Made by a program: the position numbers and the translations under genes. The notes under the pieces are model-generated. The model worked only from the letters and a program-made list of their open reading frames with translations, was not told where the DNA came from and did no database searches. 37,802 nt of DNA from a virus. Position 1 is the stretch's first letter, and every line of letters starts with the position of its first letter. The stretch covers positions 1 to 37,802 of IMG/VR virus record IMGVR_UViG_3300023179_000260; one strand, given 5' to 3'. Shown here one piece after another: positions 1,360-33,399 of the stretch.

Positions 1360-3060
1360 CTACCTTCCCTTGTACCTGCTCTCCGCCTTATGTGCCTCCC
1401 ACAGTCCCTTCGCCACTTCCTTCATGCGCCCCACGATGGCGGAGAACTTGGGCGAGTGTCTCAGGAACCGGTGCCATTCTCCCGCGGTCGCATATTTGGA
1501 AGCGGCGGCGGCTGGGTTCTCCGCGAATTCTTCAAGGAATTTCTCCCTAAATCGATCATACGGCAGGCCCTCGCCCTTGGTCTCGTAAGCCTTCCGTACC
1601 ACGGCGTCAAGGTCGTTTCCTTCTGCCTCGTACATTTTCGGAGCGACGTAACGCCTGCACAGTTCTTCCACCTCCTCGTCGGAGAAGGCCCGCCCGCCGG
1701 CCACGGTCATGAACGGCTCCAGGCTGCCGAAGTGGGACTTCCATTCCCTCGCCAGTTCGTCCTTGCCGGCCACGACGCCCCTCTCCTCGTCGCTCATGAT
1801 CTTCTCGACGACCTTGCAGCGGGTCAGCTCGACCGTCGGGATGTTGTTGTTGTACCTGTCGGGTTCCACCCCCTTCACCGTCCCCTTGATCCTAACCCGA
1901 AGCCCCTCGTCGAGGCTCTCCTTGGACGCCTTCCACTTGTAGGTCTGGCCCGCGTCGTCCTTCATGACGTGCAGCGTGGTGACCCCGTAGTCCGTCGACC
2001 AGCTCCGAACCTTCTCGACCGTCAGCACGCCCTCGAACTTGTCGCCCGCCTTGAGCGTCGGGGCGGGAGGAGCCTCGGCGGGGGAGCGGCCGGGCGTGGA
2101 CGACGAAGCCCCGTTGGCCCTGTCGTACGCTGAGGGAAGGCTGGCCATCAGACCCGCAGTCCTGGCGTTGACCGTGAGGCCCTCCGCCGCGACGGACAGG
2201 TTCCAGAGGTACTGCTCGAGGTCGTCGTTTCCGGCGTCCTTCAGCGACCTGGCCCATTCTACCATCTTCTCGGCCCTCTCCCTGTCGTCGGGCCTGCGGG
2301 CGGATTCGACGTCCTCCTTGAATTTCTTCGTCTCCTTGTCCGTGGAGGCGCTGAAGAAGTAGCGCGAGACCTCGCTCGCGGTGGTGGGCTTGTTCCTCTC
2401 CTCCGATATGCGCTTGCTTACGAAGCCGAACTTCCTGATGACCGCGATGGTGGTCGCGAGGAAGTTGACCGTCTCGACCTCGTCGGACCGACGCCCGCCG
2501 CCAAGGCCGTCGAGGTCGCCCTCCATCGAGTCGGTGAGGCTCTTGAGCTCCGAGAAGTAGAGGACGTAGGCCGCGGGGTCGTCAGTTCCGAGGAAGTCAC
2601 GCAGGCAGTTAGTGCCCACCTGCTTGTACTCGCCGGCGTCGCTCTTCAGGACGAAGGTGTCCTTGCGGTTGCGGGTCGACCGGCAGTGTTCGCAGGACGG
2701 CGGGGCTGTCCTGTACTTTGTGGGTACGTCCTGGCCCGGCGAGCCCATGATCATGTTGCCGCCCTCGCCGTGAACTATGCGGGCGACGAACGTCCAGCCC
2801 TTCAGTTTCGGGGCCGCCCCGACGAGCTGCACCTGGGTCGTGGACATCTCCTGCGAGCGCCCGTCCGGGCCGGGGGTCTTCACGACCTTCCTGCCGACTA
2901 TGTCCATCGACACGGGGGGCATGCCGAGCTTGGCCGCCCTGCGGTTGAGCCTCTCCAGCTTCGCCTTCATGACGTCTAGGTCGCGGGTCAGCACCCAGTA
3001 CTTGCCGTCGACGCCCTGTTCCTGGCTCTCCTCGTTCTCCAGCCACTGCCTGAATTCCAT
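1360..3060 (-). CDS. Capsid-targeted candidate with Cys-rich and OB-fold-like regions
   Basis: This 566-residue protein begins MEFRQWLENE, matching the capsid-targeting-like leader shared by eight proteins here. The frame stays open upstream to 3144, but that stretch is a tRNA, so the ATG at 3060 is chosen. It has no ribosome-binding site; a late-promoter box ends 3 bases upstream. Visible parts are a Cys cluster (Cys123-x-x-Cys126 with Cys152, in CEHC and NCLRDFLG), charged helices at about 240-290, a Pro/Ala linker (318-336), and a beta-rich stretch at 337-420 that looks like an OB fold. Together these suggest nucleic-acid binding. Exact function is unknown. If the leader works as in T4, the protein is packed in the head, trimmed after about Glu8-10, and enters the cell with the DNA. 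Confidence 0.75.
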   Translation of the reverse strand: MEFRQWLENEESQEQGVDGKYWVLTRDLDVMKAKLERLNRRAAKLGMPPVSMDIVGRKVVKTPGPDGRSQEMSTTQVQLVGAAPKLKGWTFVARIVHGEGGNMIMGSPGQDVPTKYRTAPPSCEHCRSTRNRKDTFVLKSDAGEYKQVGTNCLRDFLGTDDPAAYVLYFSELKSLTDSMEGDLDGLGGGRRSDEVETVNFLATTIAVIRKFGFVSKRISEERNKPTTASEVSRYFFSASTDKETKKFKEDVESARRPDDRERAEKMVEWARSLKDAGNDDLEQYLWNLSVAAEGLTVNARTAGLMASLPSAYDRANGASSSTPGRSPAEAPPAPTLKAGDKFEGVLTVEKVRSWSTDYGVTTLHVMKDDAGQTYKWKASKESLDEGLRVRIKGTVKGVEPDRYNNNIPTVELTRCKVVEKIMSDEERGVVAGKDELAREWKSHFGSLEPFMTVAGGRAFSDEEVEELCRRYVAPKMYEAEGNDLDAVVRKAYETKGEGLPYDRFREKFLEEFAENPAAAASKYATAGEWHRFLRHSPKFSAIVGRMKEVAKGLWEAHKAESRYKGR

Positions 3061-3193: not shown

Positions 3194-3874
3194 TCAAATA
3201 GTCTTCACGGCCTCAAACTTTTTAATGGCGCCATTCAAACGCTTGACCAATGAATTGTTGACCCGCCTGGTGCCGTTGTCGTCGCCCATCGTGGGCAACA
3301 TCTCGCCTATGGTCATGAATTCTTCTTGAACTATCTGCATGAAGTTTAGAAAATTCCTCTTTTGAGTTTCGCTCCCGCGCAAACCAAATACGCCCACGAA
3401 TATCTTCCACGCGGCCTCCAATGACTTGATCAGTCCCTTGTCCTCTGCTTGGTAGGCTCTAAAAAAGTCCTTGGACTTCGCCAGCACATCCTCGGGCTTG
3501 CCCGATACGACGTTCATGCCGGTCTTGAAGGGCAAAGAAGAAACTGCGTTCGCGATCTCCTGCTTGAACAATTCGTAGGCCGCCTTGTAGGCATTATTGC
3601 CTCGCTTGTCCGTGTCGCTCACGCGCCACTTGTAAGGATCAATGCCGGCTGTCTCGCGATCCAATGGGGCAAAGTTCAAACCAACGACCCACGGCTGCAT
3701 CATGCGACCTATGATCGTATTCAAATGGAACCCCCTCGTCAGTTCCCCAATCTGATCCAAGGGAGGCCTGTCAGACAACGGAAGGCTGGCGGTCATATTG
3801 ATGCCCTGGATCCGTTCGCTTTCCTTCTCGTGATCTATGTCCTTATAACTCTCCAACCAACTTTTGAAATTCAT
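3194..3874 (-). CDS. Capsid-targeted candidate of unknown function
   Basis: The product has 226 residues when started at the ATG at 3874, which gives the leader MNFKSWLESYKD; the frame is open to 3949 but the extra residues run through a late-promoter box and do not look coding. I recognise no catalytic motif. The body is mostly helical and charged, with a basic C-terminal end (LVKRLNGAIKKFEAVKTI). The stretch GLNFAPLDRETAGIDPYKW and the following helix may form a small domain. It is followed on the same strand by a tRNA and another leader-bearing gene. By its leader it is inferred to be an internal head protein processed by the prohead protease; nothing else about its role can be read. Confidence 0.75.
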   Translation of the reverse strand: MNFKSWLESYKDIDHEKESERIQGINMTASLPLSDRPPLDQIGELTRGFHLNTIIGRMMQPWVVGLNFAPLDRETAGIDPYKWRVSDTDKRGNNAYKAAYELFKQEIANAVSSLPFKTGMNVVSGKPEDVLAKSKDFFRAYQAEDKGLIKSLEAAWKIFVGVFGLRGSETQKRNFLNFMQIVQEEFMTIGEMLPTMGDDNGTRRVNNSLVKRLNGAIKKFEAVKTI

Positions 3875-3921: not shown

Positions 3922-5601
3922 TTAGGAGGCTTGGACCTCGTACTCCCATCGGACTTTACCGCAGTCCCAGATTCGCGAAAGACCCCTCTCATTCGCCCAC
4001 TGCAACTCCGTCAGGTGGGAGGGGCACTGTGACTGCTTCTTGCTCTGGCTCTGCTTGCTGAATCTCCTCTTGGGGTTCTTCATGTCGACGTAGTAGTAGT
4101 CCGGGGGGAGGTCGGCCACTTTTTTGAAGCCGAGCCTATCGTAGACGCTTCCGTCACTGTATCTGTTGTCGCTCCATGACAATATTTTGTTGACCCCGTT
4201 CCCCGAGCACCAATCCGAACACGCCTTGAAGAGTTTGTTCGCGCCGCCAATGACCTGTACGCCCGGTCTGAAGCACAATCTCGTGAGGACGGCCTCCTTA
4301 GGATTCTTCTTCCTGTGGTGCCTGCCCATGTCGACCGCCCCGACCAGTTCTTCACCGTGGAAGAGCCCGAAGCACACCTCGCTGAGTTTGTTTGCCCCTT
4401 GTAGGTGATGGAGTTCACAGAACTCCTTCATCGTTTTCTTCGGAATCTCTCTGACTTCGCACTTCCTTCCCTTGAGCCTCCTGTCGAATACGCCTAGCTT
4501 AGAGAGAATAAGGCTCTTGCAGACCTCGTTCCTGTCGCGCCACTCGTCGTCGAATATGGTCAGGAGACGAATTCCCTTGTCCCGGCATCGCTTCCATTTA
4601 TCGTGGTGATAGGAACGGGTCTTGGGGCTGAATGAGTCCTCCGCGTGCCAGAATATCCCGCAGAATTCTATGGCCAATTTGGCGTCGGGGTCATATATGT
4701 CCAGTTCTCTGTTTTCTAGCACAGAAAAATCATTGTTGAATTCGTACCCAAAAGAATTCAGCCAATCTCTTATTTCATTCTGTTGCTTCAGATAAGGTCT
4801 GTTTTCTGGGAGGCACAGAGGGCTTTTAACGCCATACCTTTCCATACATGTGTCATGATACTTCTGCTTGAACGAAGGGTGTTTTGAAAAGCATTCTACG
4901 CCGTACCTCTCCAATAGCGTTTCGACCATCTTTCCTCGTATGGACTCGTTCTGGTGGGGGTGCTCAGTCCCGTACTTGGAAAGACAAGTTTCTTTTCTTT
5001 TTTCCCAATATTCTTCGGTCTGGGTAAAACTTTCCTTTCCGTATTTTTTACGGCATGTTTCCTTGTACTTTTGTTTGACCTCTTCGGATTGCATCGGCGA
5101 TTCGCATCCGTATTTGGCAAGACTTGAGGCTTTGAGTTTTTCTGCATGTTGTTTTGTCTTCGCAAAGTTCTCACAACCATAAAGCTCAAGACACTTGGCC
5201 CTCTGCTTTGCTTTTATTTCTTCATTTTTTAGTGGGCTGTCTGCGCCGTATCTCTCTAGGAGTTTCTTCTTGCGCTTTTCCTTGAAATCTTTGGATGAAA
5301 AGTAGGATTTTGACCCATACTTTTTTGAGTTAGTGTCGTTGGATTTCTCTACAAAGGCTTGGGATGTGAAATAATCTTTGGATCCGAACAGCGCAAGGCT
5401 CACCTCCTCCTTCTTCTTCAGGGTACAGGCCTTGGAGCCACAACTGTCCTTGTCGACCGTCTTATTCAACCTTGCAACGGATTTTTTGACCCTAGTGAAG
5501 ACGGTTCCACAGTAGTCGCACTGGATGTGGATTTTGGTTCTTATTGTGCAATCTTCGTAAGACCTTCCAATCAATTCCAGATTTAGGTCGTCTCTTATCA
5601 T
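3922..5601 (-). CDS. Free-standing homing endonuclease with 23-residue repeats and Vsr-like nuclease core
   Basis: The 559-residue protein has an N-terminal zinc-finger-like Cys cluster (CDYC at 28-31, Cys54, Cys59), then nine tandem repeats marked by Tyr/Phe-Gly at residues 72, 95, 118, 141, 164, 187, 210, 233 and 256, an exact 23-residue period with consensus like KEKrKeT-LekYGvespfqs-E. After it comes a nuclease core (ELDIYDPDAKLAIEFCGIFWH, then HHDKWKRC and LLTIFDDEW), typical of the Vsr/EDxHD homing endonucleases of large phages, and a C-terminal domain often found with them. The repeats probably bind DNA. No intron is visible, so it is free-standing. Its codon use is more AT-rich than its neighbours, fitting recent arrival. 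It separates the gp13-like gene from the capsid-targeted genes. Confidence 0.85.
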   Translation of the reverse strand: MIRDDLNLELIGRSYEDCTIRTKIHIQCDYCGTVFTRVKKSVARLNKTVDKDSCGSKACTLKKKEEVSLALFGSKDYFTSQAFVEKSNDTNSKKYGSKSYFSSKDFKEKRKKKLLERYGADSPLKNEEIKAKQRAKCLELYGCENFAKTKQHAEKLKASSLAKYGCESPMQSEEVKQKYKETCRKKYGKESFTQTEEYWEKRKETCLSKYGTEHPHQNESIRGKMVETLLERYGVECFSKHPSFKQKYHDTCMERYGVKSPLCLPENRPYLKQQNEIRDWLNSFGYEFNNDFSVLENRELDIYDPDAKLAIEFCGIFWHAEDSFSPKTRSYHHDKWKRCRDKGIRLLTIFDDEWRDRNEVCKSLILSKLGVFDRRLKGRKCEVREIPKKTMKEFCELHHLQGANKLSEVCFGLFHGEELVGAVDMGRHHRKKNPKEAVLTRLCFRPGVQVIGGANKLFKACSDWCSGNGVNKILSWSDNRYSDGSVYDRLGFKKVADLPPDYYYVDMKNPKRRFSKQSQSKKQSQCPSHLTELQWANERGLSRIWDCGKVRWEYEVQAS

Positions 5602-6811: not shown

Positions 6812-7221
6812 CAGATCAAGACAGGCCCATGCCTTTGAAGGATCTGCCGGCCTACCTGGACTCCGTGAGGGAGCGGGGGCAGGGGGACTACGTCCCGGTG
6901 GTGGATATGGGGATGATCGTGGACGACCGCCCCAGGAGGTGGGTCAGGGCCCTGGCCTACTCGTCGGTCGCATGTCTTTTCGTCGCCATCGCGTCTGCGG
7001 GCGTCGCCGTGACGAAGACGCGGAGCATAACCGTGTCGGCCGGGGGGATGGATCCGCGGGCCGTGTCCGAGATAATATCGGAGGAGGGCGGCAGGGTGCT
7101 ATCAGTGACCCAGAACGGGCGCGGCGAGTACGAGGTCAGGGTCTTCACCTTCCAGCGAATGAGCTCCTTCCTTGAGCGCCTGCGGGGCAAGGATGAATTC
7201 AAGAGGGTGGAGGCGAGATGA
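6808..7221 (+). CDS. Single-pass membrane protein
   Basis: The 137-residue protein has a soluble N-terminal part (1-47), one membrane span (about 50-69, AYSSVACLFVAIASAGVAV) and a C-terminal domain outside or in the periplasm (70-137). That domain has an alternating beta/alpha pattern (GRVLSVTQNGRGEYEVRVFTF). The start ATG follows AGGGAGG and overlaps the previous stop; its own stop overlaps the following ATG at 7218. No family is recognised. The pairing with an upstream multi-span protein suggests a small membrane complex, but that is inference. Confidence 0.7.
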   Translation: MTDQDRPMPLKDLPAYLDSVRERGQGDYVPVVDMGMIVDDRPRRWVRALAYSSVACLFVAIASAGVAVTKTRSITVSAGGMDPRAVSEIISEEGGRVLSVTQNGRGEYEVRVFTFQRMSSFLERLRGKDEFKRVEAR

Positions 7222-7835
7222 AGTTCAGGGAGTTCCTCGATTATGACATGGAGGTTACCGACCGCTGGCCGGTCAACAAGGCCACATACGACATGGACGA
7301 CCCCGAGGACAGGTGGAGGTACGAAAGCGACCTGAAGGACAGGCTCGCCAAGATGCAGCGCAAGGTGGTGTCCGACAGAATCGTGGAGGAACCGCACAGG
7401 ATCACGTGCTGGAGGGGTTTCGACATGAGGTCGTTCGAGAGGGACGCCGAAGAGTTGGGGGGAAGGCTATACCTGAATGGAGAAAGAGCGATGAGCGGGA
7501 TGCTGTGGTTCACCTACGACATCCAGCCGGTGCACCACTACGACCCGAGGACCTACGCTCTTGAGCATGCGTACGGTGACGGCTACCTGCTGACTTATCC
7601 TTTGGAGTGCAACAGGTCGTACAGGCTCATCAAGTACGACAACGGATCGGAGTGGAGCGAGTCTCCCGAGGGCGCGAAGACCAACCCCACCGAGCTGGAC
7701 AATATGGCGGTGATTGGCGGGCGGCTTTACGAACTGCCGCGGGGGTGGTACTTCACCTGGCAGGTGGAGAAGAATCTCGGCTTCAAGGGCAAATTGGAGA
7801 TCGACTGGTCGATGCTCCGGAGGGTGAAGGAATGA
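7218..7835 (+). CDS. Capsid-targeted candidate, possibly ADP-ribosyltransferase-like
   Basis: The 205-residue product starts MKFREFLDYD, the shared leader. Inside is HRITCWRGFD, then MLWFTYDIQ, a helix with YALEHAYGDGYLLTYPLE. A strand ending in Arg-Gly, a (W/F)(F/S)T strand and a following Tyr-Ala helix are reminiscent of ADP-ribosyltransferase folds. I cannot place all three catalytic residues, so the fold is a suggestion only. The start and stop both overlap neighbours (ATGA), placing it in one operon with another leader-bearing protein that is more clearly ADP-ribosyltransferase-like. T4 also packages such an enzyme (Alt) in its head. Confidence 0.7.
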   Translation: MKFREFLDYDMEVTDRWPVNKATYDMDDPEDRWRYESDLKDRLAKMQRKVVSDRIVEEPHRITCWRGFDMRSFERDAEELGGRLYLNGERAMSGMLWFTYDIQPVHHYDPRTYALEHAYGDGYLLTYPLECNRSYRLIKYDNGSEWSESPEGAKTNPTELDNMAVIGGRLYELPRGWYFTWQVEKNLGFKGKLEIDWSMLRRVKE

Positions 7836-8707
7836 AGTTTTCCGAGTGGATTCTGCGGGAGGCCCGCACGCCCAAAGTGATCATGTACCACGGCACTGCC
7901 TTCAGGAACCTGCGCTCGATCATGTCCCACGGGCTTCTGCCGAGGGGGAGGAGCAAGGCGTGGGCGGAAGACCCAGACTCTTCGTTCAACAGCGCGAGTC
8001 GGGCCTCTCTCGACGGAATCTACCTGACCAGGAACCTCATGACCGCCCTTTCGGCGGCCACCAACGGGGCGAACCGAAAGTACATGGAGGAGGGGGACCT
8101 CCTGGTGGCGGTGGAGATGCAGCCGAAGACCGCGTTCGCGGACGAGGACGACCTCAACTTCATGGCTACGGTCGCGAACAACGAGATGAAGGTCGCCGAC
8201 CTGTACTCGATGCTCGGCAACCCTTCGTACGAGGAGTACGTCGAGAAGGCTCGGGAGGAGTACAGGGAGCGCGTCTTTAGCAGGACGGCTTCCTACATCG
8301 GTTTGAATCCGATGGCCAAGGAGAGGATCGGGGCGGTTGCGGACGAGGTTTTCGAGGCGGCCTTGAGGAGGCAGGCTGCGTATTCGGATTACTACCTCAA
8401 GAGATACTTCAAAGACATAGAGGCCCCGAACAAGGCCGCCGCGGAGAGGGATTTCATGGCCGCGCGCGAGAGGATGACGAGGACGCTCAAGGGACTCGCC
8501 AACCCGTTCCGCCATTCCAGCGAGCCGTTCAACCTGACGGCCCGTGTGGAGGAGCCGATAGGGTTCAGGGGGACGAACAGGATAGTGTGCGTCCTCCACG
8601 TGCCCTTCGACTACAAGCAGAAGCCGAGGCTTATATACGGGCAGGTTCCCGACGACCTCATTCGGCAGTGGGAGCAGAGGAAGGGCAAATGGACAGGAGT
8701 GGAATGA
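7832..8707 (+). CDS. Capsid-targeted ADP-ribosyltransferase-like protein
   Basis: The 291-residue product begins MKFSEWILRE. Right after it comes KVIMYHGTAFRNLRSIMSHGLLP (residues 15-37), the His-Gly-Thr strand and helix typical of the His-Tyr-Glu type ADP-ribosyltransferase fold. SLDGIYLTRNLMTALSAA (59-76) provides the Tyr64 strand and the next helix, and VAVEMQP-TAFADED (92-106) the third strand and acidic residues. The C-terminal half is helical, with an RRQ-YSDYYLKRYF stretch and a short strand region at the end. Such enzymes transfer ADP-ribose from NAD to proteins or nucleic acids. In T4 the head-packaged Alt modifies host RNA polymerase at injection, so an equivalent role is likely here. 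Start and stop overlap adjacent genes. Confidence 0.75.
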   Translation: MKFSEWILREARTPKVIMYHGTAFRNLRSIMSHGLLPRGRSKAWAEDPDSSFNSASRASLDGIYLTRNLMTALSAATNGANRKYMEEGDLLVAVEMQPKTAFADEDDLNFMATVANNEMKVADLYSMLGNPSYEEYVEKAREEYRERVFSRTASYIGLNPMAKERIGAVADEVFEAALRRQAAYSDYYLKRYFKDIEAPNKAAAERDFMAARERMTRTLKGLANPFRHSSEPFNLTARVEEPIGFRGTNRIVCVLHVPFDYKQKPRLIYGQVPDDLIRQWEQRKGKWTGVE

Positions 8708-9891
8708 ACTTCAGGAAGTGGCTTGAAACGGTTGGGGGAGTGCGTCGCTTAAAGGATGCCGGATGGCAGCCGGAGGGATACCCCAGCGAGATAAGGGGGA
8801 TGAAGACCTCCGTCACGCTTTCCGAACTAGGAACATTCGGATGGTTCCGTGCCTACTCCGCCTCAGACAGCTCGGGCTACGACCCAGAGTGGGGAGTTTC
8901 TCTCTATGGTTCAGACTGGTTCGCCGAAGGATTCGACGGAAGACTGCTGGTGGAGGTCACACAAAGGCTGATGTCCTTGGGCTTCAGGCCCTTGAGGGTC
9001 AGTGTCATATTCCATGGTTCGGTGCCGTCGAAGGACGCCGAGGGCACGCACGAGCCGCAGCTCCATGTGATAAGGGTGAAGAAGGGACTCGACGAGGGGC
9101 GCATGATGCACGTGCTTGCCCACGAGTGGGCTCATGCGGTGTGGAAGTCCATGCCCAAGCAGGACAAGGAATCATTCGAGAAGTACTGGGTCGGGTCGTT
9201 CGGAAGGAGGGGGAGCGGACTTTCCTCGTACGCGTTCACGGGCGGACCCAAGGAGATGTTCTGCGAGATGGTGGCGGAGGCGGTCGCCAACCCTTCGGCT
9301 CTCTCGCGGGAGGAGGCGAAGCTCGTGAGGATGGTCGCAGGCGGTTCGATGCCCGTCCACAGCCTGGGCGAGGCCGTGGTCTCTTCCGAGGACGTCGGGT
9401 CGGCCTTGAGGAAAACCATGGAGATGCAGGTCGAGGGGAGGTGGTCGGATGTGGGCGTGAAGAGGGAGGGACACAATCCTCCCGTGGTGAAGTTCATGGG
9501 CAAGCTCCGCAACGAGAGGACGGGCTACGGCGGCCCCGAGTACTTCTATGTCACCGCCTACGCGATACTGGGTGGCAGGAACGGGTCGCCCCTGTTCTCG
9601 TACGACACCGCCTCGGGAAGCGAAGACCTGAGGATAAACGGGTCCATTCTGTATTTGAACGGACGGGGAGGGTACGCCGAGTTGGGGGTGCGCAGTTCCG
9701 ACCACCACTCTCAAGATTTGTCGTCGTCTTTCGGTCAGACCTTGAGGACGCCCTTCGAATTCGCAAAATGGGTTGAGGCGGTGGTCGGACGATTCGAAGG
9801 ATTCGGGGATTTTGACGACGACGGCGGGGACGACGATGTTGAGCCATGGTCGCCCGTCCCTTCTTCCGGATCTAGACTTGTCCCCGCGTAG
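8704..9891 (+). CDS. Capsid-targeted zinc metalloprotease
   Basis: The 395-residue product starts MNFRKWLETV. A zinc-binding HEXXH motif is clear: HVLAHEWAHAVW with His140, Glu141 and His144. The third ligand is probably Glu184 or Glu188 in GPKEMFCEMVAEA, giving the gluzincin pattern. Before it lies a strand region with HVIRV, and after it a beta-rich C-terminal domain (about 270-370) and an acidic tail (DFDDDGGDDD). The start overlaps the ART-like gene stop by 4 bases. As an inferred injected protease it might cleave a host defence or regulatory protein, but the substrate is unknown; peptidoglycan or capsid processing is less likely since the prohead protease of T4 phages is a serine enzyme. 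Confidence 0.8.
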   Translation: MNFRKWLETVGGVRRLKDAGWQPEGYPSEIRGMKTSVTLSELGTFGWFRAYSASDSSGYDPEWGVSLYGSDWFAEGFDGRLLVEVTQRLMSLGFRPLRVSVIFHGSVPSKDAEGTHEPQLHVIRVKKGLDEGRMMHVLAHEWAHAVWKSMPKQDKESFEKYWVGSFGRRGSGLSSYAFTGGPKEMFCEMVAEAVANPSALSREEAKLVRMVAGGSMPVHSLGEAVVSSEDVGSALRKTMEMQVEGRWSDVGVKREGHNPPVVKFMGKLRNERTGYGGPEYFYVTAYAILGGRNGSPLFSYDTASGSEDLRINGSILYLNGRGGYAELGVRSSDHHSQDLSSSFGQTLRTPFEFAKWVEAVVGRFEGFGDFDDDGGDDDVEPWSPVPSSGSRLVPA

Positions 9892-9904: not shown

Positions 9905-10177
9905 ATGGAACTCAACTCCATGGAACTCGTCGGGTGGGCCGGATCATTGTTGCTCGCGTTCTGCGGGCTGCCGCAGGCCATCGAGTCGTGGAGAACGGGC
10001 TCGTCCTCGGGCGTGACTTGGGGCCTGCTGGCGATGTGGGGCGTGGGCGAGGTTCTGACGCTCGCGTACGTTATGCCCAAGATGGAGATGCCCCTTCTGT
10101 TCAACTACGCCGCCAACATCGTGTTCCTTGTTGTCATCTCATACTACAAGATTTGGCCCCGCGTCAGTCGTACCTGA
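9905..10177 (+). CDS. PQ-loop (SemiSWEET-like) membrane protein
   Basis: The 90-residue product has three hydrophobic segments and one PQ-loop repeat: GWAGSLLLAFCGLPQAIESW, followed by TGSSSGVTWGLLAMWGVGE. The Pro-Gln pair followed by a short polar turn is the mark of the SWEET/SemiSWEET and lysosomal-transporter superfamily, whose bacterial members are three-helix proteins that work as dimers to pass sugars or amino acids. A second ATG at 9920 (MELVGW) is equally possible; the first is used because a late-promoter box sits 4 bases before it. The 3' end overlaps the opposing gene by 14 bases. Such a gene is rarely noted in phages; it may alter solute flow in the infected cell. Confidence 0.75.
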   Translation: MELNSMELVGWAGSLLLAFCGLPQAIESWRTGSSSGVTWGLLAMWGVGEVLTLAYVMPKMEMPLLFNYAANIVFLVVISYYKIWPRVSRT

Positions 10178-11333
10178 ACTTCTCCCTCTTCATCTCCGCG
10201 TCCAGTTCTGGGCTCCATTGGACGGCGGGAGATGCGGTCGCCGATATCCTGTATACCGTTCCCCCTCTGGCCGCGGCGTACGAATCCTTCTCTGTATTGA
10301 AGAGTTTAGTGTCTGGGCTGACCTTCGCGATCAATCCCTTCAGAACCTCTAGGTTGTCCTCTAGTTCGTCTGGCGCCACGGAAGTCAGAGAGATTCGGGA
10401 GTCGCCGTCGAAGTTAGACCTTCCTATCCTGACCGTGCCCCTCGAGGTCGTCCTCGGGGGCTTGAAGTCGTTGGGTTCGGAGTGGAGTTCGGGATCTTCG
10501 TCGAGGTCGTCGAATCCCTCTCCGAACAGCCTCTCCAGAGCCCTCTTGTCGGCGAAGTGGAACCCTGGGTTCGTATGCGCCGCGAGGGCTGCCACGATGT
10601 CGTGCAGCCGAGACTCAGAAAGCCCGTACTTTTTGGAGTTCCTCTTGATCCATTCCGAAAGTTCGTAGGCGTCGCCAGGTTTCGAAGAATGCCCGGTGGC
10701 GAACTTCCTCAGCGACAGTATCTTGTCGACCATCTTCTGGATGTTCGGCGGGAGCCTCACTGAACGACCGAGCGGGAACCTTCTGACCGGGGCGTAGTCC
10801 CCTGATACGAACGCGTCGTGCTTGTCCCTGATCACGAGGTCTTTCTGGTTGTTCGGTCTTGTGGGGTGGAACTGTGCGCTCGTTATGTCGATGTACATTC
10901 CCTCCGCCTCAACCCACCAGTGTTGCTGCGGATTGGTCATGCCCGAGTTCCTTGGCGGGATGGGGTCGTCAAGTCTGATGTCGTACCCTGCGCTGTACCC
11001 GTCTTCCGCATGGCCGTACCACCCGGAGACCTTCCTGGCCCTGAAGCCCTTCTCTTTTAGGAACTTGACCAGACCTTCGGCGGCGTTTGCGCAGGTGAAA
11101 GACATCGGATGGTGCTTGAACGGAACCACATCCAGGCTCCTGTCGTAGTCGGAACCCAGTTCGTCCTCGACGTGCTTTGGGTTCTTGGGGTCGAAGTTCA
11201 TGTTCTTCGGACGGGTGATGTAGTAGCACCTCCTCGCCTCGGGCCTCGTCGACATGTACTCACGAACCGCGGACTCCAGCCGATCTTTTGTTGTCTGCTC
11301 TGATTCCGCGAGCCATTCCGCGAAGTTCTTCAT
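10164..11333 (-). CDS. Capsid-targeted transglutaminase/papain-like protein
   Basis: The 389-residue product starts MKNFAEWLAESE, the closest match here to the T4 internal-protein leader (MKTYQEFIAEA), with predicted cleavage after Glu10. A Cys-His-Asp triad can be read: Cys81 at the head of a helix (CANAAEGLVKFLKEKG), His138 in QQHWWVEAEG and Asp149 in MYIDIT. This order, with helix, strand, His strand and Asp turn, is that of transglutaminase-like papain-fold enzymes, which cleave or cross-link peptides or deamidate Gln. The C-terminal half (about 200-389) is helical and then beta-rich with no known motif. A TnpB element lies directly upstream and separates the gene from its likely late promoter at 12723. 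Confidence 0.75.
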   Translation of the reverse strand: MKNFAEWLAESEQTTKDRLESAVREYMSTRPEARRCYYITRPKNMNFDPKNPKHVEDELGSDYDRSLDVVPFKHHPMSFTCANAAEGLVKFLKEKGFRARKVSGWYGHAEDGYSAGYDIRLDDPIPPRNSGMTNPQQHWWVEAEGMYIDITSAQFHPTRPNNQKDLVIRDKHDAFVSGDYAPVRRFPLGRSVRLPPNIQKMVDKILSLRKFATGHSSKPGDAYELSEWIKRNSKKYGLSESRLHDIVAALAAHTNPGFHFADKRALERLFGEGFDDLDEDPELHSEPNDFKPPRTTSRGTVRIGRSNFDGDSRISLTSVAPDELEDNLEVLKGLIAKVSPDTKLFNTEKDSYAAARGGTVYRISATASPAVQWSPELDAEMKREKFRYD

Positions 11334-11336
11334 ATG

Positions 11337-12718
11337 TTTGTGGGCAGGAAACCCATACTTTTGTCGTCAAAAGTTGGCTCCGCTTCGGAGCCAACCCTTT
11401 AGGGCATGGGAGGAATGCCCACGACAGCAAAAAATAATGTTTTACCCGCTTTTCTCCTTTGTAAAAAATTAAACCATCTGCATATATACGAGTGGTATAT
11501 GAAACAGATACGAACCGTTAAAATACGACTGAAGGTTGCGAACAGTGTGTTCAAGCCGACGCTTGAAGCATACACGAACGCCTTCAACCAAGTATGCAAG
11601 ACCGCTTGGGACAACCAAGAGTTCAACGGAGTCCGTCTGCATCACCTCACCTACAAGCGTTTGAGGGAGGAAACCAAACTCAAATCCCAACTTGCGATCT
11701 CCGCAAGGGTCAAGGCAACAGAGGCTCTGTCCTCCGTCCTTGCGAGGAAGAAGAAGGGGAAGAATGTTTCCTGCCCGCAAAGCAAGTGTTGCGCCATAAG
11801 GTACGATGACCGAAGTCTGACTGTTGATTTTAAGACCAACACAGTCAACATCCTGACCATCAACGGAAGGGTCAAGATTCCGATCTCCGTACCCAAGTAT
11901 TTTGAACAGTACCTTTCCTGGAAAAGATGTTCCGCCGACCTTTTCCAGACGAAGGGAAAGACCTTCCTGCACATTGTTTTTGAGCGGGAAGTTGAGGATA
12001 TTCAGCCTTCCGGCGATTTCGTCGGAGTTGATCGTGGAATAAGGAACCTTGCTGTCACGAGCGACAACAGGTTCTTCGGCGGAAATAGGATCAAGAGATT
12101 GAGCGAAAGATATGAGAGGTTGAGAGGCGAGTTGCAAAGCAAAGGCACTCGCTCCGCAAGGACACACCTGAAGAAGATCAACAGGTGCGAACGGCTCATG
12201 CGGAAGGACATCAACCACTGTATTGCGAAGAAGATAGTTGAGGGGTTGAAACCCGGCACGACGATTGTTCTTGAGAAGTTGACCGGAATCCGTGGCGGAG
12301 CGAGGAAACTCAACGCCGAGGAAAGAAAGGAAGGCAAAAAAACCTTGAGAAAGGCACAAAGGAAGGAAGTCAACAAGTGGAACTTTTTCCAACTTGAGCA
12401 GTTTCTCGCCTACAAGGCTCTTGCAAAGGGCTGCAATGTTGAATATGTGGATGCCCGCTACACATCGCAAGGATGCAGCAAGTGCGGCCATGTCGCAAGA
12501 GGCAACAGGCAGTGCCAGTCCTTTTTCAAATGTAAAAAGTGCGGTTTTCAACTTAATGCAGACCTCAATGCTTCTCGCAATATTGTTCTCAAACATTTGG
12601 ACGCTACATGCCATCCAAACAAGGTAAATGTCAATTTGCCTAACGGCGGTTGTGAAACTGCTAATGTTCACCTTCGGGTTTGAACAAGCCCACTCGCTTT
12701 AGCGGGTGGGTAATTGAC
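11337..12718 (+). mobile_element. TnpB-only element of the IS200/IS605 type
   Basis: A TnpB gene is flanked by structured ends. The left end has a perfect 10-bp stem at 11373-11382/11386-11395 and a 6-bp stem at 11402-11407/11415-11420. The right end has a 9-bp stem at 12689-12697/12702-12710 (one T-G pair) followed by TAATTGAC, which is typical of such elements. No TnpA transposase is present, so mobility would depend on one in trans. Exact ends are estimated to within a few bases: joining the flanks restores a late-promoter box 6 bases before the ATG of the 10164-11333 gene. Confidence 0.7.
11499..12683 (+). CDS. tnpB: TnpB RNA-guided endonuclease
   Basis: The 394-residue product has the split RuvC nuclease site with Asp178 (GVDRGIRNLAV), Glu259 (IVLEKLTG) and Asp355 (NADLNASRNI), and the zinc finger between the last two (Cys326, Cys329, Cys345, Cys348). 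These are all intact, so it is probably active. TnpB cuts DNA matching a guide carried on an RNA made from the right end of its element. The frame is open upstream to 11406, but the ATG at 11499 gives the usual N-terminus (MKQIRTVKIRL). Codon use is less GC-rich than the phage genes, which suits transfer from elsewhere. The strongly biased antisense frames inside it are shadows. Confidence 0.92.
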   Translation: MKQIRTVKIRLKVANSVFKPTLEAYTNAFNQVCKTAWDNQEFNGVRLHHLTYKRLREETKLKSQLAISARVKATEALSSVLARKKKGKNVSCPQSKCCAIRYDDRSLTVDFKTNTVNILTINGRVKIPISVPKYFEQYLSWKRCSADLFQTKGKTFLHIVFEREVEDIQPSGDFVGVDRGIRNLAVTSDNRFFGGNRIKRLSERYERLRGELQSKGTRSARTHLKKINRCERLMRKDINHCIAKKIVEGLKPGTTIVLEKLTGIRGGARKLNAEERKEGKKTLRKAQRKEVNKWNFFQLEQFLAYKALAKGCNVEYVDARYTSQGCSKCGHVARGNRQCQSFFKCKKCGFQLNADLNASRNIVLKHLDATCHPNKVNVNLPNGGCETANVHLRV

Positions 12719-12735
12719 GTTCGTATTTAGGCTCC
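12684..12735 (+). ncRNA. Right-end omega-RNA scaffold tail and guide (inferred)
   Basis: TnpB guide RNAs end in a right-end hairpin followed by 16-20 bases of flanking DNA that act as the guide. Here the hairpin is at 12689-12710, and the guide would begin near 12719 (GTTCGTATTTAGGCTCC). The RNA probably starts inside the 3' part of tnpB, so its 5' end is not defined here. Confidence 0.45.
12723..12730 (-). promoter_or_regulatory. Late-promoter box CTAAATAC separated from its gene by the TnpB element
   Basis: The box points towards the minus-strand gene at 11333 but now lies about 1.4 kb away, just outside the element's right end. Without the element, GAACAT would separate the box from the ATG, similar to the 3-5 base spacing of other genes in the window. 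Confidence 0.5.
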
Positions 12736-14170: not shown

Positions 14171-14722
14171 ATGCTGAGGAACCCGGACGGAACGCCATAC
14201 AGGTTGACTGGTAGTCTTGAGCAGTTCGACCCGGACAACCCGGAGCGTTGCCTCTGGAACGAGTGGGACGCCGAGTGGATCAAGATATACGGCTCCCCCA
14301 TATTCTACTACGAGGTCTTCATACAGACCGGGTCGCTTGACCGCCTGTATCGCGAGGACAGGGGCAAGTTGTGGTCGAACAACCCGGTGACCCTCTACGC
14401 GAGCTACGAGCCCGTGGTCGGCCAGAACTACCAGAGCGCGTTCGGCATTGACTCGCCAGACGAGGTGATATTCGACCTCAACTACAGGGAGGTCATCCAG
14501 AAGGTGGGTCACCCGCCGAAGATCGGTTCGCGCATACACAGCCCGCACAGGGGAGAGGACTGGGTCATCATCCAGCTGAACATGGGCGAGACGATGCTGT
14601 GGAGCAGGATGAGGCTTCAGATACTCTGCCAGAGGTTCCAGGAGAGCGTCACGACGGGCGAGGGCAAGGTGACGCAGAAAAAGCCAGACTTCGACCTCAA
14701 CGACCTGAACAACCGGTCATGA
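14171..14722 (+). CDS. 14: Neck protein, gp14-like
   Basis: The 183-residue product resembles T4 gp14 in order: an EVFIQTGSLDRLYREDRGKLW stretch, then a YEPVVGQNYQSAFGIDSPDEVIFDLNYREV segment, then PPKIGSRIHSPHRGEDWVIIQLN. In T4 gp14 the corresponding parts are an acidic EDL stretch, an EGYEGQNSFFSKFG-type segment with DEV, and a G-D-x-I-Y-x-P turn. Gp14 binds gp13 and joins head to tail. T4 gp14 is longer (256 residues), so the C-terminus is shortened or replaced by a Lys/Asp/Asn-rich tail. The gp15 gene follows about 600 bases on, on the same strand, supporting the call. Confidence 0.75.
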   Translation: MLRNPDGTPYRLTGSLEQFDPDNPERCLWNEWDAEWIKIYGSPIFYYEVFIQTGSLDRLYREDRGKLWSNNPVTLYASYEPVVGQNYQSAFGIDSPDEVIFDLNYREVIQKVGHPPKIGSRIHSPHRGEDWVIIQLNMGETMLWSRMRLQILCQRFQESVTTGEGKVTQKKPDFDLNDLNNRS

Positions 14723-15136
14723 TTTTGGATTCAACGGAACCTTGAACAAGACTTGGAAGCCGTCCGGCTTCGCGGCTCCGTAGTTGTATTCCTTGCCCCT
14801 GTACTCGAACGAGACATGGTGCCGGAAGTCGTCCCCGACTCTCACGACGAAGTTGGCGACTCCATCCCTGCTGGATTTCGGCTCGGGCGCCTTGATCCAG
14901 GGAACGTGCTTGCTCGCCCAAAACCTCTTGTACTGGTCCATCTTCGACGATATTTCGTGGGCAGGGGCGGGCTCGTATCCGAAACGCTCCGCAAGAGCGG
15001 ACGCGATCTCGTAGCAGTCCTGTCCGGACTGGTTCCAAGCTTTGGCTCCCCTGACCAACCCCAACTTGTCAGACATTTCGTGGCCGACCTTGTTGACGTG
15101 CGGGGCTTTGGACTCCATCCACTGGGAGAATCTCAT
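14717..15136 (-). CDS. Capsid-targeted candidate, possible cysteine peptidase-like
   Basis: The 139-residue product starts MRFSQWMESK. Cys41 sits at the start of a helix (DCYEIASALAERFG) and a later strand carries His106-His107 and then Asn118 (FRHHVSFEYRGKEYNYG). A Cys helix followed by a His strand and an Asn or Asp turn is how small papain/transglutaminase-like folds look, like the longer protein at 10164-11333 but much shorter. This reading is tentative. The gene lies between gp14 and gp15 on the other strand. A late box ends 3 bases before its ATG, and the stop of a 57-codon gene overlaps the ATG. Confidence 0.7.
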   Translation of the reverse strand: MRFSQWMESKAPHVNKVGHEMSDKLGLVRGAKAWNQSGQDCYEIASALAERFGYEPAPAHEISSKMDQYKRFWASKHVPWIKAPEPKSSRDGVANFVVRVGDDFRHHVSFEYRGKEYNYGAAKPDGFQVLFKVPLNPKS

Positions 15137-29741: not shown

Positions 29742-30098
29742 CTATTGCTCTTCCGATGCGAGCGAGTTCGTGGGTTTATCCTGATTGCCCGCCATGGCCT
29801 CCATGTGGGCTTGGCAGGCCTTCAAGACGCCCGAGAGGTCGTCCTTCTCCTCTATTGCCCTCATAATGGCCACACCGCATTTCTGGAGGGTCTTTAGACC
29901 CGGCTCCTCCCTTTGGGGCCAGTGGGTGTGAACGACCCTCCTGATCTGATTTACGATGCCTTGGGCGTTCGACACGAGGTGCCTTGTACCCATGTCGCCC
30001 GCGCTGTCGTTGAGGTCCTGGAGGGCCTCCAGGATGCCTGAGACCCTTTGTGCGAAGTACTGGTCGGTCTCGGCCAATATGAAGTCCTTGAATTCCAT
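29742..30098 (-). CDS. Capsid-targeted candidate, small helical protein
   Basis: The 118-residue product starts at ATG 30098 with MEFKDFILAETD, a close match to the capsid-targeting-like leader (cleavage likely after Glu10). The frame is open to 30455 but that part lies inside the next gene. The body is helical (VSGILEALQDLNDSAG, GIVNQIRRVVHTHW, LKTLQKCGVAIMRAIEE, VLKACQAHMEAMAG) and ends in a polar tail. A late-promoter box lies 4 bases upstream with no ribosome-binding site. It could be an internal head protein like T4 IP proteins. Function otherwise unknown. Confidence 0.72.
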   Translation of the reverse strand: MEFKDFILAETDQYFAQRVSGILEALQDLNDSAGDMGTRHLVSNAQGIVNQIRRVVHTHWPQREEPGLKTLQKCGVAIMRAIEEKDDLSGVLKACQAHMEAMAGNQDKPTNSLASEEQ

Positions 30099-31317: not shown

Positions 31318-33399
31318 TCACGCCTCGCACGAAGAACAAGTGAGTATGGAGCGGGCGAGTTCCTGCGCCGGGTTCGCCGACCTCTGGTAGTAGAATGTCT
31401 TGACTCCCATCTGCCAACCCTCGATGAGCAGGCTGTTGACGTCCTTTGGGGAGGTCGAAGGGGGAACCATCAGGTTGAGGCTCTGCGACTGATCTATGTG
31501 CTTCTGCCTCTGGGCGGCCTGGATGACGACCTCCTTTTGCGATATCTCGCCGAAGGTCTTGAAGACGTCCTTCTCCTCCTTGGTCAGGAAGTCCAAGTGC
31601 TGGACGGATCCGCCCTTCACGAGGATGCTCTTCCACGTCGCCTCGTCGTTCCTGTCGTACTTCTTCAGGACTTCCTTGAGGTACGGGTTCTTGTATGTGA
31701 ACTTGCCCTTGGCGAGGTTCTTGACGAAGTAGTTGCTGTTCAGGGGCTCGATGCTCGGACTGACCTGCCCGAGGATGAAGCTGCTGGATGTCGTGGGGGC
31801 TATGGCGAGGGTGGTGACGTTCCTGCGTCCGTATCCCTCGAGCAGGGGCGGCTCGCCGTAGTCCTTGGCCATCTGTTCCGTGGTTTTGTCGGCCCGCTCG
31901 CGCACTGTCTTCCATATCTCCGCGTTCTTCATCTTCGCCTCCATGCTCTCGAAGGCGATCATCTTGCTTTGAAGATAGGAGTGCCACCCGAGAGCCCCGA
32001 GCCCCAGGGCTCTTTGTTCCATTGCGAACTTGCGGGGGGCTTCCATGTATTTGACGCCCTCCGTCTTGCGGATGAACTCCTCGCAGACCGAGTCGAGAAA
32101 CATGACCATTGTCTCGACCGCGTCAGTTTCGACCATCTCGTCCCAGTGCAGCAGGTTGAGGCTGGACAGAACGCACACGAACGAGTTGTTCTCGTCCGAG
32201 AACAGCTGAATCTCCGAGCAGTTCCCGGTGAGGACGCCGTTGAATACGGCCTTGTGTTCTTTCGGCTCGTTGACGCAGTAGGTGTCGCTTTTGCCCGCAG
32301 GGGCGATTTCGATGACTTCCGTCCTGACCAGCCTTCCTCTGCTGTCCGTGAAGCGGAGAAGTTCGTCGCCCGGCTTGAGGTCGGCGGCCCTGACCTCCGT
32401 TCCGTCCTTGAGGTAGAACTTGTGGTACTCCGTGGTCTTGAGGCTAGGGAACTTGAGGGACTGCGTGTCGTCGTCGTCCAATTCCCTGACCACGACCTTT
32501 ACTTCCAGAAGTGCCTGGTCCGATCCGGTCTTGCGGATCACGGTCTTAGACCACTCCTTGCCGTTCCAGACCTCAACCTCCTTGCCTTCGTGCTCGCCGA
32601 TCGCGATCTCTCCCTCTCGGGTGAGGAGCATGGTGTCCGGGGAGACGCACAGGTTGCTCGCCTTGATCTTAAGTTTCTTTTCCTTGTAGACCTTGGGGGC
32701 GTTCTTGTTCGCGGTGTCGACGAACATAATGTACGGATATCCGGTTTCGAACCGCTTCTGGATGACCTTGGCCCAGATGGCCCGCTTCTCCTTGTCGCCC
32801 TCGATGAGGTCTTTCATGAACTTGTCGGTGACCGTCACGCCGATGCTCATGTTCTGGATGCTGTGTCCCTCGCTCCTGATCCTGAGGAACTCCTCTATGT
32901 CGGCGTGCTCAATCGGCATGTAGGCCGCGAACGATCCGCGGCGTGCGCTACCTTGGCTGATGACCTCGCTGATCTTGTCGAATATCTCCATGAAGTGGAC
33001 GGCCCCACTGCTCTCGCCGCCCACGCTGATCTTCGTGCCCCTCGGCCTGAGGGCACCGAAGAATCCGCTCGTGCCTCCGCCCATCTTGCTCATGATGCCG
33101 ACCTCAGCCGCCTTCGTGAGGATGCTCTCCATCTTGTCCTCGACGAAGCTGCCGAAGCAGCTGACCGGGAGCCCTCTCTTGTTCCCGAAGTTGCACCAGA
33201 CCGGGGTCGCGAGGGAGTAGAAGCCCCGCTTCATGTATCCCTCGAACTTGTCAGCGAAGCCCTTGACCTTGAGGATGGACTCGGCGTTCTCCGCTATCTG
33301 TCTTATCCGCTGCTCAGGGGTCACCCCCGGCTCAAGGTAGCCACGCTCTAGGAAGAGGCGGCTGTGGGAGTTGAGCCAATAATAGTCCTTGCTGTTCAT
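31318..33399 (-). CDS. nrdA: Ribonucleotide reductase large subunit with intein
   Basis: The 693-residue precursor is a class I NrdA. Cys81 (GLPVSCFGS) and Cys394 (NCSEIQLF) are active-site Cys; the motif Asn-x-Cys-x-Glu (SNLCSE) is rebuilt only after removal of residues 251-393. The C-terminus has the redox pair CSSC. The N-terminal ATP cone is missing, so the mature protein (about 550 residues) may escape dATP control. It converts ribonucleoside diphosphates to deoxy forms with NrdB, which is encoded next upstream. The start has AAGG before it. Antisense frames over this gene are shadows. Confidence 0.95.
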   Translation of the reverse strand: MNSKDYYWLNSHSRLFLERGYLEPGVTPEQRIRQIAENAESILKVKGFADKFEGYMKRGFYSLATPVWCNFGNKRGLPVSCFGSFVEDKMESILTKAAEVGIMSKMGGGTSGFFGALRPRGTKISVGGESSGAVHFMEIFDKISEVISQGSARRGSFAAYMPIEHADIEEFLRIRSEGHSIQNMSIGVTVTDKFMKDLIEGDKEKRAIWAKVIQKRFETGYPYIMFVDTANKNAPKVYKEKKLKIKASNLCVSPDTMLLTREGEIAIGEHEGKEVEVWNGKEWSKTVIRKTGSDQALLEVKVVVRELDDDDTQSLKFPSLKTTEYHKFYLKDGTEVRAADLKPGDELLRFTDSRGRLVRTEVIEIAPAGKSDTYCVNEPKEHKAVFNGVLTGNCSEIQLFSDENNSFVCVLSSLNLLHWDEMVETDAVETMVMFLDSVCEEFIRKTEGVKYMEAPRKFAMEQRALGLGALGWHSYLQSKMIAFESMEAKMKNAEIWKTVRERADKTTEQMAKDYGEPPLLEGYGRRNVTTLAIAPTTSSSFILGQVSPSIEPLNSNYFVKNLAKGKFTYKNPYLKEVLKKYDRNDEATWKSILVKGGSVQHLDFLTKEEKDVFKTFGEISQKEVVIQAAQRQKHIDQSQSLNLMVPPSTSPKDVNSLLIEGWQMGVKTFYYQRSANPAQELARSILTCSSCEA
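32221..32649 (-). other. Mini-intein within NrdA (143 residues)
   Basis: Residues 251-393 of the precursor interrupt SNL/CSE. It begins with CVSPDTMLLTREG (block A), has KTTEYHKFYLKDG (block B-like) and ends VFNGVLTGN before Cys394. No endonuclease is present. The penultimate residue is Gly, where most inteins have His. Splicing should join Leu250 to the catalytic Cys394. Confidence 0.93.

What the first reader, a model, noticed from the sequence alone, without database searches (positions are those of the whole stretch)
10164..12730. TnpB element splits a capsid-targeted gene from its late promoter and its guide reads that promoter
The element lies between the ATG at 11333 and a CTAAATAC box at 12723-12730. 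Removing it rejoins the box and ATG with a 6-base spacer, like the other leaderless genes. The guide starting near 12719 (GTTCGTATTTAGGCTCC) covers the box, so TnpB could cut co-infecting phage DNA that lacks the insertion, acting like a homing endonuclease. The downstream gene may now be silent or use another promoter.
Basis: partly seen in the sequence, partly recalled or inferred. Interest (0 to 1): 0.75.

Follow-up and report, generated by a model that had tools for sequence, protein, structure and literature searches.

The report
Phage TnpB element docked at start codon
A small RNA-guided DNA-cutting mobile element sits exactly between a phage gene's start codon and its late promoter, so its guide RNA matches the uninterrupted site; this is how such elements normally read their flank, but copies of this family land against start codons more often than chance would suggest.

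Summary
A TnpB-only IS200/IS605-type element occupies 11334-12718 of a T4-like phage fragment. Copies in five unrelated contexts fix both ends: TTCAT before the left end, TTGAC (TTGAT once) as the right end. A related phage (L025) has the same genes without the element and keeps the joined architecture GGAGCCTAAATA-N4-ATG, against GGAGCCTAAATA-CGAAC-ATG when the window is rejoined. TnpB keeps its catalytic motifs, is under purifying selection (dN/dS 0.11) and has a covarying omega-RNA scaffold ending at the guide. A 92%-identical copy in a much more AT-rich relative sits at a different gene, so the family moves.

That the guide "reads the promoter" is not special targeting. TTCAT is the complement of ATGAA, so insertion against a start codon puts whatever lies 5' of that gene into the guide. 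Four of six copies abut start codons (6-14% expected); capsid-targeted genes start ATGAA three times as often as others. Many genes of this phage group, this one among them, carry the promoter box 4-5 bases from ATG without ribosome sites, so insertion probably silences the gene. Homing between co-infecting phages is plausible but untested; no cleavable empty site was found.

The parts
10164..11333 (-). Gene with a capsid-targeting-like N-terminus (MKNFAEWLAE), cut off from its late promoter; orthologues in L025 (72%) and L086 (63%); possible papain/transglutaminase-like Cys81-His138-Asp149
   Evidence: weak Pfam YunG and Transglut_core hits; triad is inference
11329..11333 (+). TTCAT, the transposon-associated motif; its CAT is the complement of the gene's start codon
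   Evidence: same 5 bases at the left flank of 6 of 6 copies
11334..12718 (+). TnpB-only IS200/IS605-type element, 1385 bp
   Evidence: ends fixed by comparison of copies and by the element-free relative L025
11339..11422 (+). Left-end structured region (GTGGGC..GCCCAC stem enclosing variable hairpins)
   Evidence: alignment A2 and folds
11483..11488 (+). TATATA box 10 bases upstream of tnpB, a TATA-like box also present in the other copies; possible promoter
   Evidence: alignment; function inferred
11499..12683 (+). tnpB, 394 aa; RuvC motif residues D178, E259, D355 and zinc ribbon intact; dN/dS 0.11 against L002
   Evidence: Pfam PF07282 1e-22 and PF01385 7e-10
12630..12718 (+). Predicted omega-RNA scaffold: GUCAAUU/AAUUGAC stem closing three hairpins, overlapping the end of tnpB
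   Evidence: fold and covariation
12688..12711 (+). Right-end hairpin (CCCACTCGC TTTA GCGGGTGGG)
   Evidence: compensatory changes
12719..12734 (+). Guide GTTCGTATTTAGGCTC, taken from the flank
   Evidence: follows the right end directly; 16-nt length by analogy with ISDra2 (PMC8612924)
12723..12730 (-). CTAAATAC late-type promoter box, now pointing into the element (antisense to tnpB)
   Evidence: conserved in L025
12741..12748 (+). CTCTTTTA, divergent promoter box of gene 12753, 4 bases from its ATG, untouched by the insertion
   Evidence: orthologous boxes in L010, L021, L025, L086
12753..13043 (+). Downstream gene, 96 aa, unknown function, syntenic in about 30 related loci

Best explanation
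This is a TnpB-only element of the IS200/IS605 kind that moved into a T4-like phage by inserting 3' of TTCAT. That motif is the complement of the start ATGAA of a capsid-targeted gene, so the element landed exactly between the start codon and a promoter box that lies only 4-5 bases upstream. Shown by sequence: the ends, the motif, the element-free arrangement in a relative, TnpB under purifying selection, the scaffold RNA structure, and presence of near-identical copies at other sites. Inferred from studied TnpBs: the right-end RNA carries the 16 bases 12719-12734 as guide, and TnpB cuts motif plus guide, which exists only in DNA lacking the insertion (a site after excision, or an element-free phage genome in the same cell); repair copies the element in. 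Inferred: the interrupted gene loses its leaderless late transcript and is little expressed, and the displaced promoter now transcribes antisense through the scaffold RNA and tnpB.
For: TnpB family hits and solved TnpB/Cas12f relatives; identical motif and ends in six copies with different flanks; element-free relative L025 with the box, near-identical spacing and gene order; 92% identical element at the gp33-like gene of a 37%-GC relative of this 58%-GC phage, dN/dS 0.11; covarying scaffold closing just before the guide; box-adjacent genes lack ribosome sites, 2 of 40 against 439 of 825, p=2e-10. Homing of TnpB elements was proposed for ISDra2 (PMC8612924) and reported as a gene drive between plasmids in a preprint (PMC11870625).
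Against: No RNA or cutting data. L025 carries GACAT, not TTCAT, so the exact pre-insertion allele was not seen. No TnpA in the window or in the related records searched, so the moving enzyme is missing or acts from elsewhere; these records are fragments. The full-length transcript from the displaced promoter could still express the gene weakly.
Confidence: 0.75

Rival explanations
1. Ordinary insertion-sequence retention only: TnpB re-cuts the site after excision within one genome and plays no part in spread between co-infecting phages.
For: No motif-bearing site in the held relatives matches the guide closely; the role proposed for TnpB is re-cutting the donor joint (PMC8612924).
Against: No TnpA in these phages, so excision from within is unlikely to be frequent; near-identical copies lie in diverged phages. 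In phages many genome copies share a cell, as in the plasmid drive (PMC11870625).
Confidence: 0.4
2. The guide-promoter match is functional regulation: TnpB with its RNA represses or cuts the late promoter of rival phages, like TldR repressors derived from TnpB.
For: The guide covers the promoter box of the split gene; phage-borne RNA-guided TldR regulators exist (PMC13418256, seen).
Against: The nuclease motifs are intact, whereas TldRs are known as nuclease-dead (own knowledge). Sister copies have guides reading other kinds of sequence, so the promoter match follows from the insertion site.
Confidence: 0.07
3. The element is harmless because the gene is still expressed: the displaced promoter reads through the element, or the left end supplies a new promoter or start.
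For: The promoter still points towards the gene, with about 1.4 kb of leader; the gene is intact with no stops.
Against: No box or ribosome site in the 40 bases before the ATG; the leader carries strong hairpins.
Confidence: 0.25
4. Start-codon docking is coincidence of a small sample plus selection against insertions inside genes.
For: Only six copies with both ends; one (L003) is inside a reading frame and one (L004) is unclear. Selection would remove harmful insertions.
Against: 4 of 6 at starts against 6-14% of TTCAT sites, binomial p about 1e-4 to 5e-3; in the relatives other noncoding TTCAT sites are more common than start sites, yet no copy was clearly placed in one.
Confidence: 0.45

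Closest known systems
ISDra2 TnpB (IS200/IS605), Deinococcus radiodurans (PMC8612924)
   Same: TnpB nuclease, right-end RNA with about 16 bases of flank as guide, 5-base motif at the left flank (TTGAT there, TTCAT here), insertion 3' of the motif
   Different: No TnpA; phage-borne; the motif equals the complement of a start ATGAA
TnpB gene drive in plasmids (PMC11870625, preprint)
   Same: TnpB cutting element-free copies of the replicon in the same cell would bias inheritance
   Different: Reported for plasmids, not for co-infecting virulent phages; not tested here
ISCaje elements, mostly TnpB-only, of T4-like Campylobacter phages CP220/CPt10 (PMC2853527)
   Same: TnpB-only elements, at different places in related T4-like phages
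   Different: Reported target ATTTT for two of them; the passages read describe no start-codon or promoter relation
T4 homing endonucleases such as SegB (cited in PMC2853527)
   Same: Would work alike: cut the element-free allele during mixed infection
   Different: Protein-recognised sites against an RNA guide copied from the flank; different nuclease family
TldR RNA-guided repressors (PMC13418256)
   Same: TnpB-derived, phage-borne, RNA-guided
   Different: Nuclease-dead regulators; here the catalytic residues are intact

Membership tests
IS200/IS605 TnpB-only element | TnpB with OrfB and zinc-ribbon/RuvC domains | tested here: met
   PF01385 and PF07282 above cut-off; PDB relatives
IS200/IS605 TnpB-only element | Subterminal hairpins at both ends, no target duplication, insertion 3' of a short motif | tested here: met
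   joined site against L025 shows no duplication
IS200/IS605 TnpB-only element | No tnpA in the element | tested here: met
   No Y1 transposase (PF01797) in the window or eight related records
Active TnpB nuclease with omega-RNA | RuvC D-E-D residues intact and purifying selection | tested here: met
   D178, E259, D355 invariant among the five copies, assigned by motif; dN/dS 0.11
Active TnpB nuclease with omega-RNA | Structured RNA at the 3' end of tnpB ending at the transposon end | tested here: met
   Covarying scaffold ending TTGAC
Active TnpB nuclease with omega-RNA | RNA-guided cutting of motif plus guide | not testable with these tools
   Needs biochemistry
Homing element between phages (works like) | Cleavable element-free alleles exist | tested here: inconclusive
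   L025 element-free but without the motif; best other motif-bearing match has 2 mismatches
Homing element between phages (works like) | Biased inheritance in mixed infection | not testable with these tools
   Needs crosses
TldR repressor | Loss of the nuclease active site | tested here: not met
   Catalytic motifs intact
HEARO/IscB | HNH/IscB protein and HEARO RNA | tested here: not met
   Only a weak antisense HEARO match, 21 bits against 83; protein is TnpB
T4-type capsid-targeted internal protein | Short N-terminal targeting sequence | tested here: inconclusive
   Motif M-x(1-2)-F-x-x-[WF] shared by about 8 window genes and following only 0.2% of internal Met codons; that it equals the T4 CTS (PMC3012670) is by resemblance
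T4-type capsid-targeted internal protein | Packaged and processed in the head | not testable with these tools
   Needs virion proteomics

The most novel reading that the evidence does not exclude
A TnpB element family whose insertion motif (TTCAT) is the complement of the start ATGAA and so docks between a gene's start codon and its control region. It leaves coding sequence intact, favours capsid-targeted phage genes, switches leaderless late genes off, and carries a guide against the control region of element-free rivals, acting as an RNA-guided homing element in phage populations.
Probability: 0.3. Interest if true: 0.75.

Novelty: new variant of a known kind. Interest (0 to 1): 0.55.

Why it matters
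If true, RNA-guided homing known from insertion sequences and plasmids would extend to virulent phage populations with fully predicted targets that can be tested directly. It would also give a simple rule, motif equals complement of start codon, for how a selfish element spares coding sequence, and a natural switch-off of a probable virion-packaged protein. The supporting finding, a leaderless late-promoter class in this T4-like phage group, is testable by RNA mapping.

Tried and rejected
Search with the interrupted protein alone found no relative; the tail sheath search did. Left-end pattern search gave mostly unrelated hits. The phage records hold no DNA-level match to the element. HEARO and Atu_C8 Rfam matches are below threshold and antisense. 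A search of 29 genomes around the archaeal MAG found no further usable copy. Structure prediction of the interrupted protein was too weak to use (pLDDT 56). The reading of L004 was not resolved, so its site stays unclassified. L099 lacks its left end and was not counted.

Full report
What is there. The window is an IMG/VR virus fragment of a T4-like myovirus: tail sheath, head-tail adaptor, a gp55-like late sigma factor and a ribonucleotide reductase are recognisable. On the plus strand, 11499-12683 encodes a 394-residue TnpB (PF07282 E=1e-22, PF01385 E=7e-10). Its RuvC motif residues D178, E259 and D355 and its zinc ribbon are invariant among the five copies aligned; the assignment of these residues is by motif.

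Ends of the element. Near relatives L002, L003, L004 and L005 (75-92% identity) and a broken copy in an archaeal MAG contig, L009, lie in unrelated flanks. Aligned, all six have TTCAT immediately left of the element, and all end in AATTGAC (L005 AATTGAT) before the flanks diverge. In the window this gives 11334-12718, 1385 bp. No Y1 transposase is found in the window or eight related records, so this is a TnpB-only element.

The element-free arrangement. The tail sheath search recovered 80 related phage loci. L025 has the same gene order (PQ-loop gene, the capsid-targeted gene at 72% identity, gene 12753) with 33 bp between the two divergent start codons and no element. Reading towards the interrupted gene, the rejoined window gives GGAGCCTAAATA-CGAAC-ATG, and L025 gives GGAGCCTAAATA-TTGC-ATG. 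L025 has GACAT in place of TTCAT, so it should not be cut. L086 has, upstream of gene 12753, another capsid-targeted gene with CTAAATA-TCCCC-ATGAAG. L021, the closest relative, lacks the gene at this place.

Why the guide reads a promoter. TTCAT is the complement of ATGAA. When the element inserts at a start codon of that form, its right flank, and hence its guide, is whatever lies 5' of the gene. With the flanks compared across copies: the window copy abuts the start of the capsid-targeted gene; L002 the start of a gp33-like gene; L005 the start of a capsid-targeted-like gene (MKTFKDF) that overlaps the upstream stop codon as TAATG, with both frames kept; L009 the start of a DNA methyltransferase-like gene. 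L003 lies inside a reading frame and L004 is unclear. So 4 of 6 copies abut starts, while only 14% (window) or 6% (relatives) of TTCAT sites lie at called starts; binomial p about 1e-4 to 5e-3. The sample is small and selection against insertions inside genes contributes. Capsid-targeted-like genes begin ATGAA in 19 of 39 cases against 130 of 841 for other genes (p=2.5e-6), which makes them natural landing sites.

Leaderless late genes. Among 865 distinct genes of the window and relatives, boxes of the form TA[ATC]ATA end 4-5 bases from ATG in 35 cases, against a background of 4.3 per position. Only 2 of 40 box-adjacent genes have a Shine-Dalgarno-like motif, against 439 of 825 others (p=2e-10). 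T4 late promoters have an 8-bp TATA box about one helical turn upstream of the start of transcription (PMC2988020), so these transcripts should begin at or next to ATG. This is inference; no RNA data were available. The insertion puts 1.4 kb between box and ATG. The 40 bases now upstream hold neither a box nor a ribosome site, so low expression is expected, and the displaced promoter points antisense through scaffold and tnpB.

Is it functional and mobile? The element is 92% identical in nucleotides between this 58%-GC phage and the 37%-GC relative that holds L002, where it sits at another gene; dN/dS of tnpB is 0.11. The 3' end of tnpB and the right end form a predicted RNA with a GUCAAUU/AAUUGAC closing stem and three hairpins; the right-end hairpin and the first hairpin show compensatory changes. 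This supports an omega-RNA whose scaffold ends at 12718 and whose guide begins at 12719.

Mechanism. For ISDra2, TnpB uses about 16 flanking bases as guide, cuts the motif-flanked element-free joint, and was proposed to cause transposon homing (PMC8612924). A preprint reports TnpB acting as a gene drive between plasmid copies (PMC11870625). The same logic in co-infecting phages is the best explanation of how an element without TnpA would spread between alleles; reaching new sites needs a transposase from elsewhere. No cleavable element-free site was found in the held DNA (best match 2 mismatches), so the homing step remains inferred.

Comparison with the known. TnpB-only elements at different places in T4-like phages were described in Campylobacter phages (PMC2853527). 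TldR repressors are excluded as a family by the intact active site; HEARO/IscB by the protein and the weak antisense match. Searches for TnpB with start codon, TTCAT, homing or co-infection terms showed, in the titles and abstracts listed, no report of the start-codon relation; that library is partial.

Noticed in passing
window 1360-3060, 3194-3874, 7218-7835, 7832-8707, 8704-9891, 10164-11333, 14717-15136, 29742-30098: A set of genes with capsid-targeting-like N-termini; one weakly resembles an ADP-ribosyltransferase/KptA (7832-8707, PF01885 E=0.007) and one a metallopeptidase (8698-9891, E=0.02). The phage may package several proteins with its DNA.
   Followed up: partly
window and L010-L089: Two gene classes: box 4-5 bases from ATG without ribosome site (leaderless type), and genes with ribosome site and box further upstream.
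   Followed up: yes
window 31318-33399: NrdA-like protein appears to carry a mini-intein (CVSPDTMLLTREGEIAIG ... GVLTGNCSE).
   Followed up: no
window 3922-5601: Long protein with repeated KYG-type units, possibly another homing-endonuclease-like gene.
   Followed up: no
L057:8131-8766, and records holding L003 and L005: Distant second TnpB genes (24% or weak matches) in related phages.
   Followed up: no
L009: Broken copy of this element family on a contig binned to a Candidatus Altiarchaeales MAG; the contig may be a misbinned virus.
   Followed up: partly
L005:4188: The element keeps the upstream gene's stop codon because its reversed right end begins with A after TA.
   Followed up: partly
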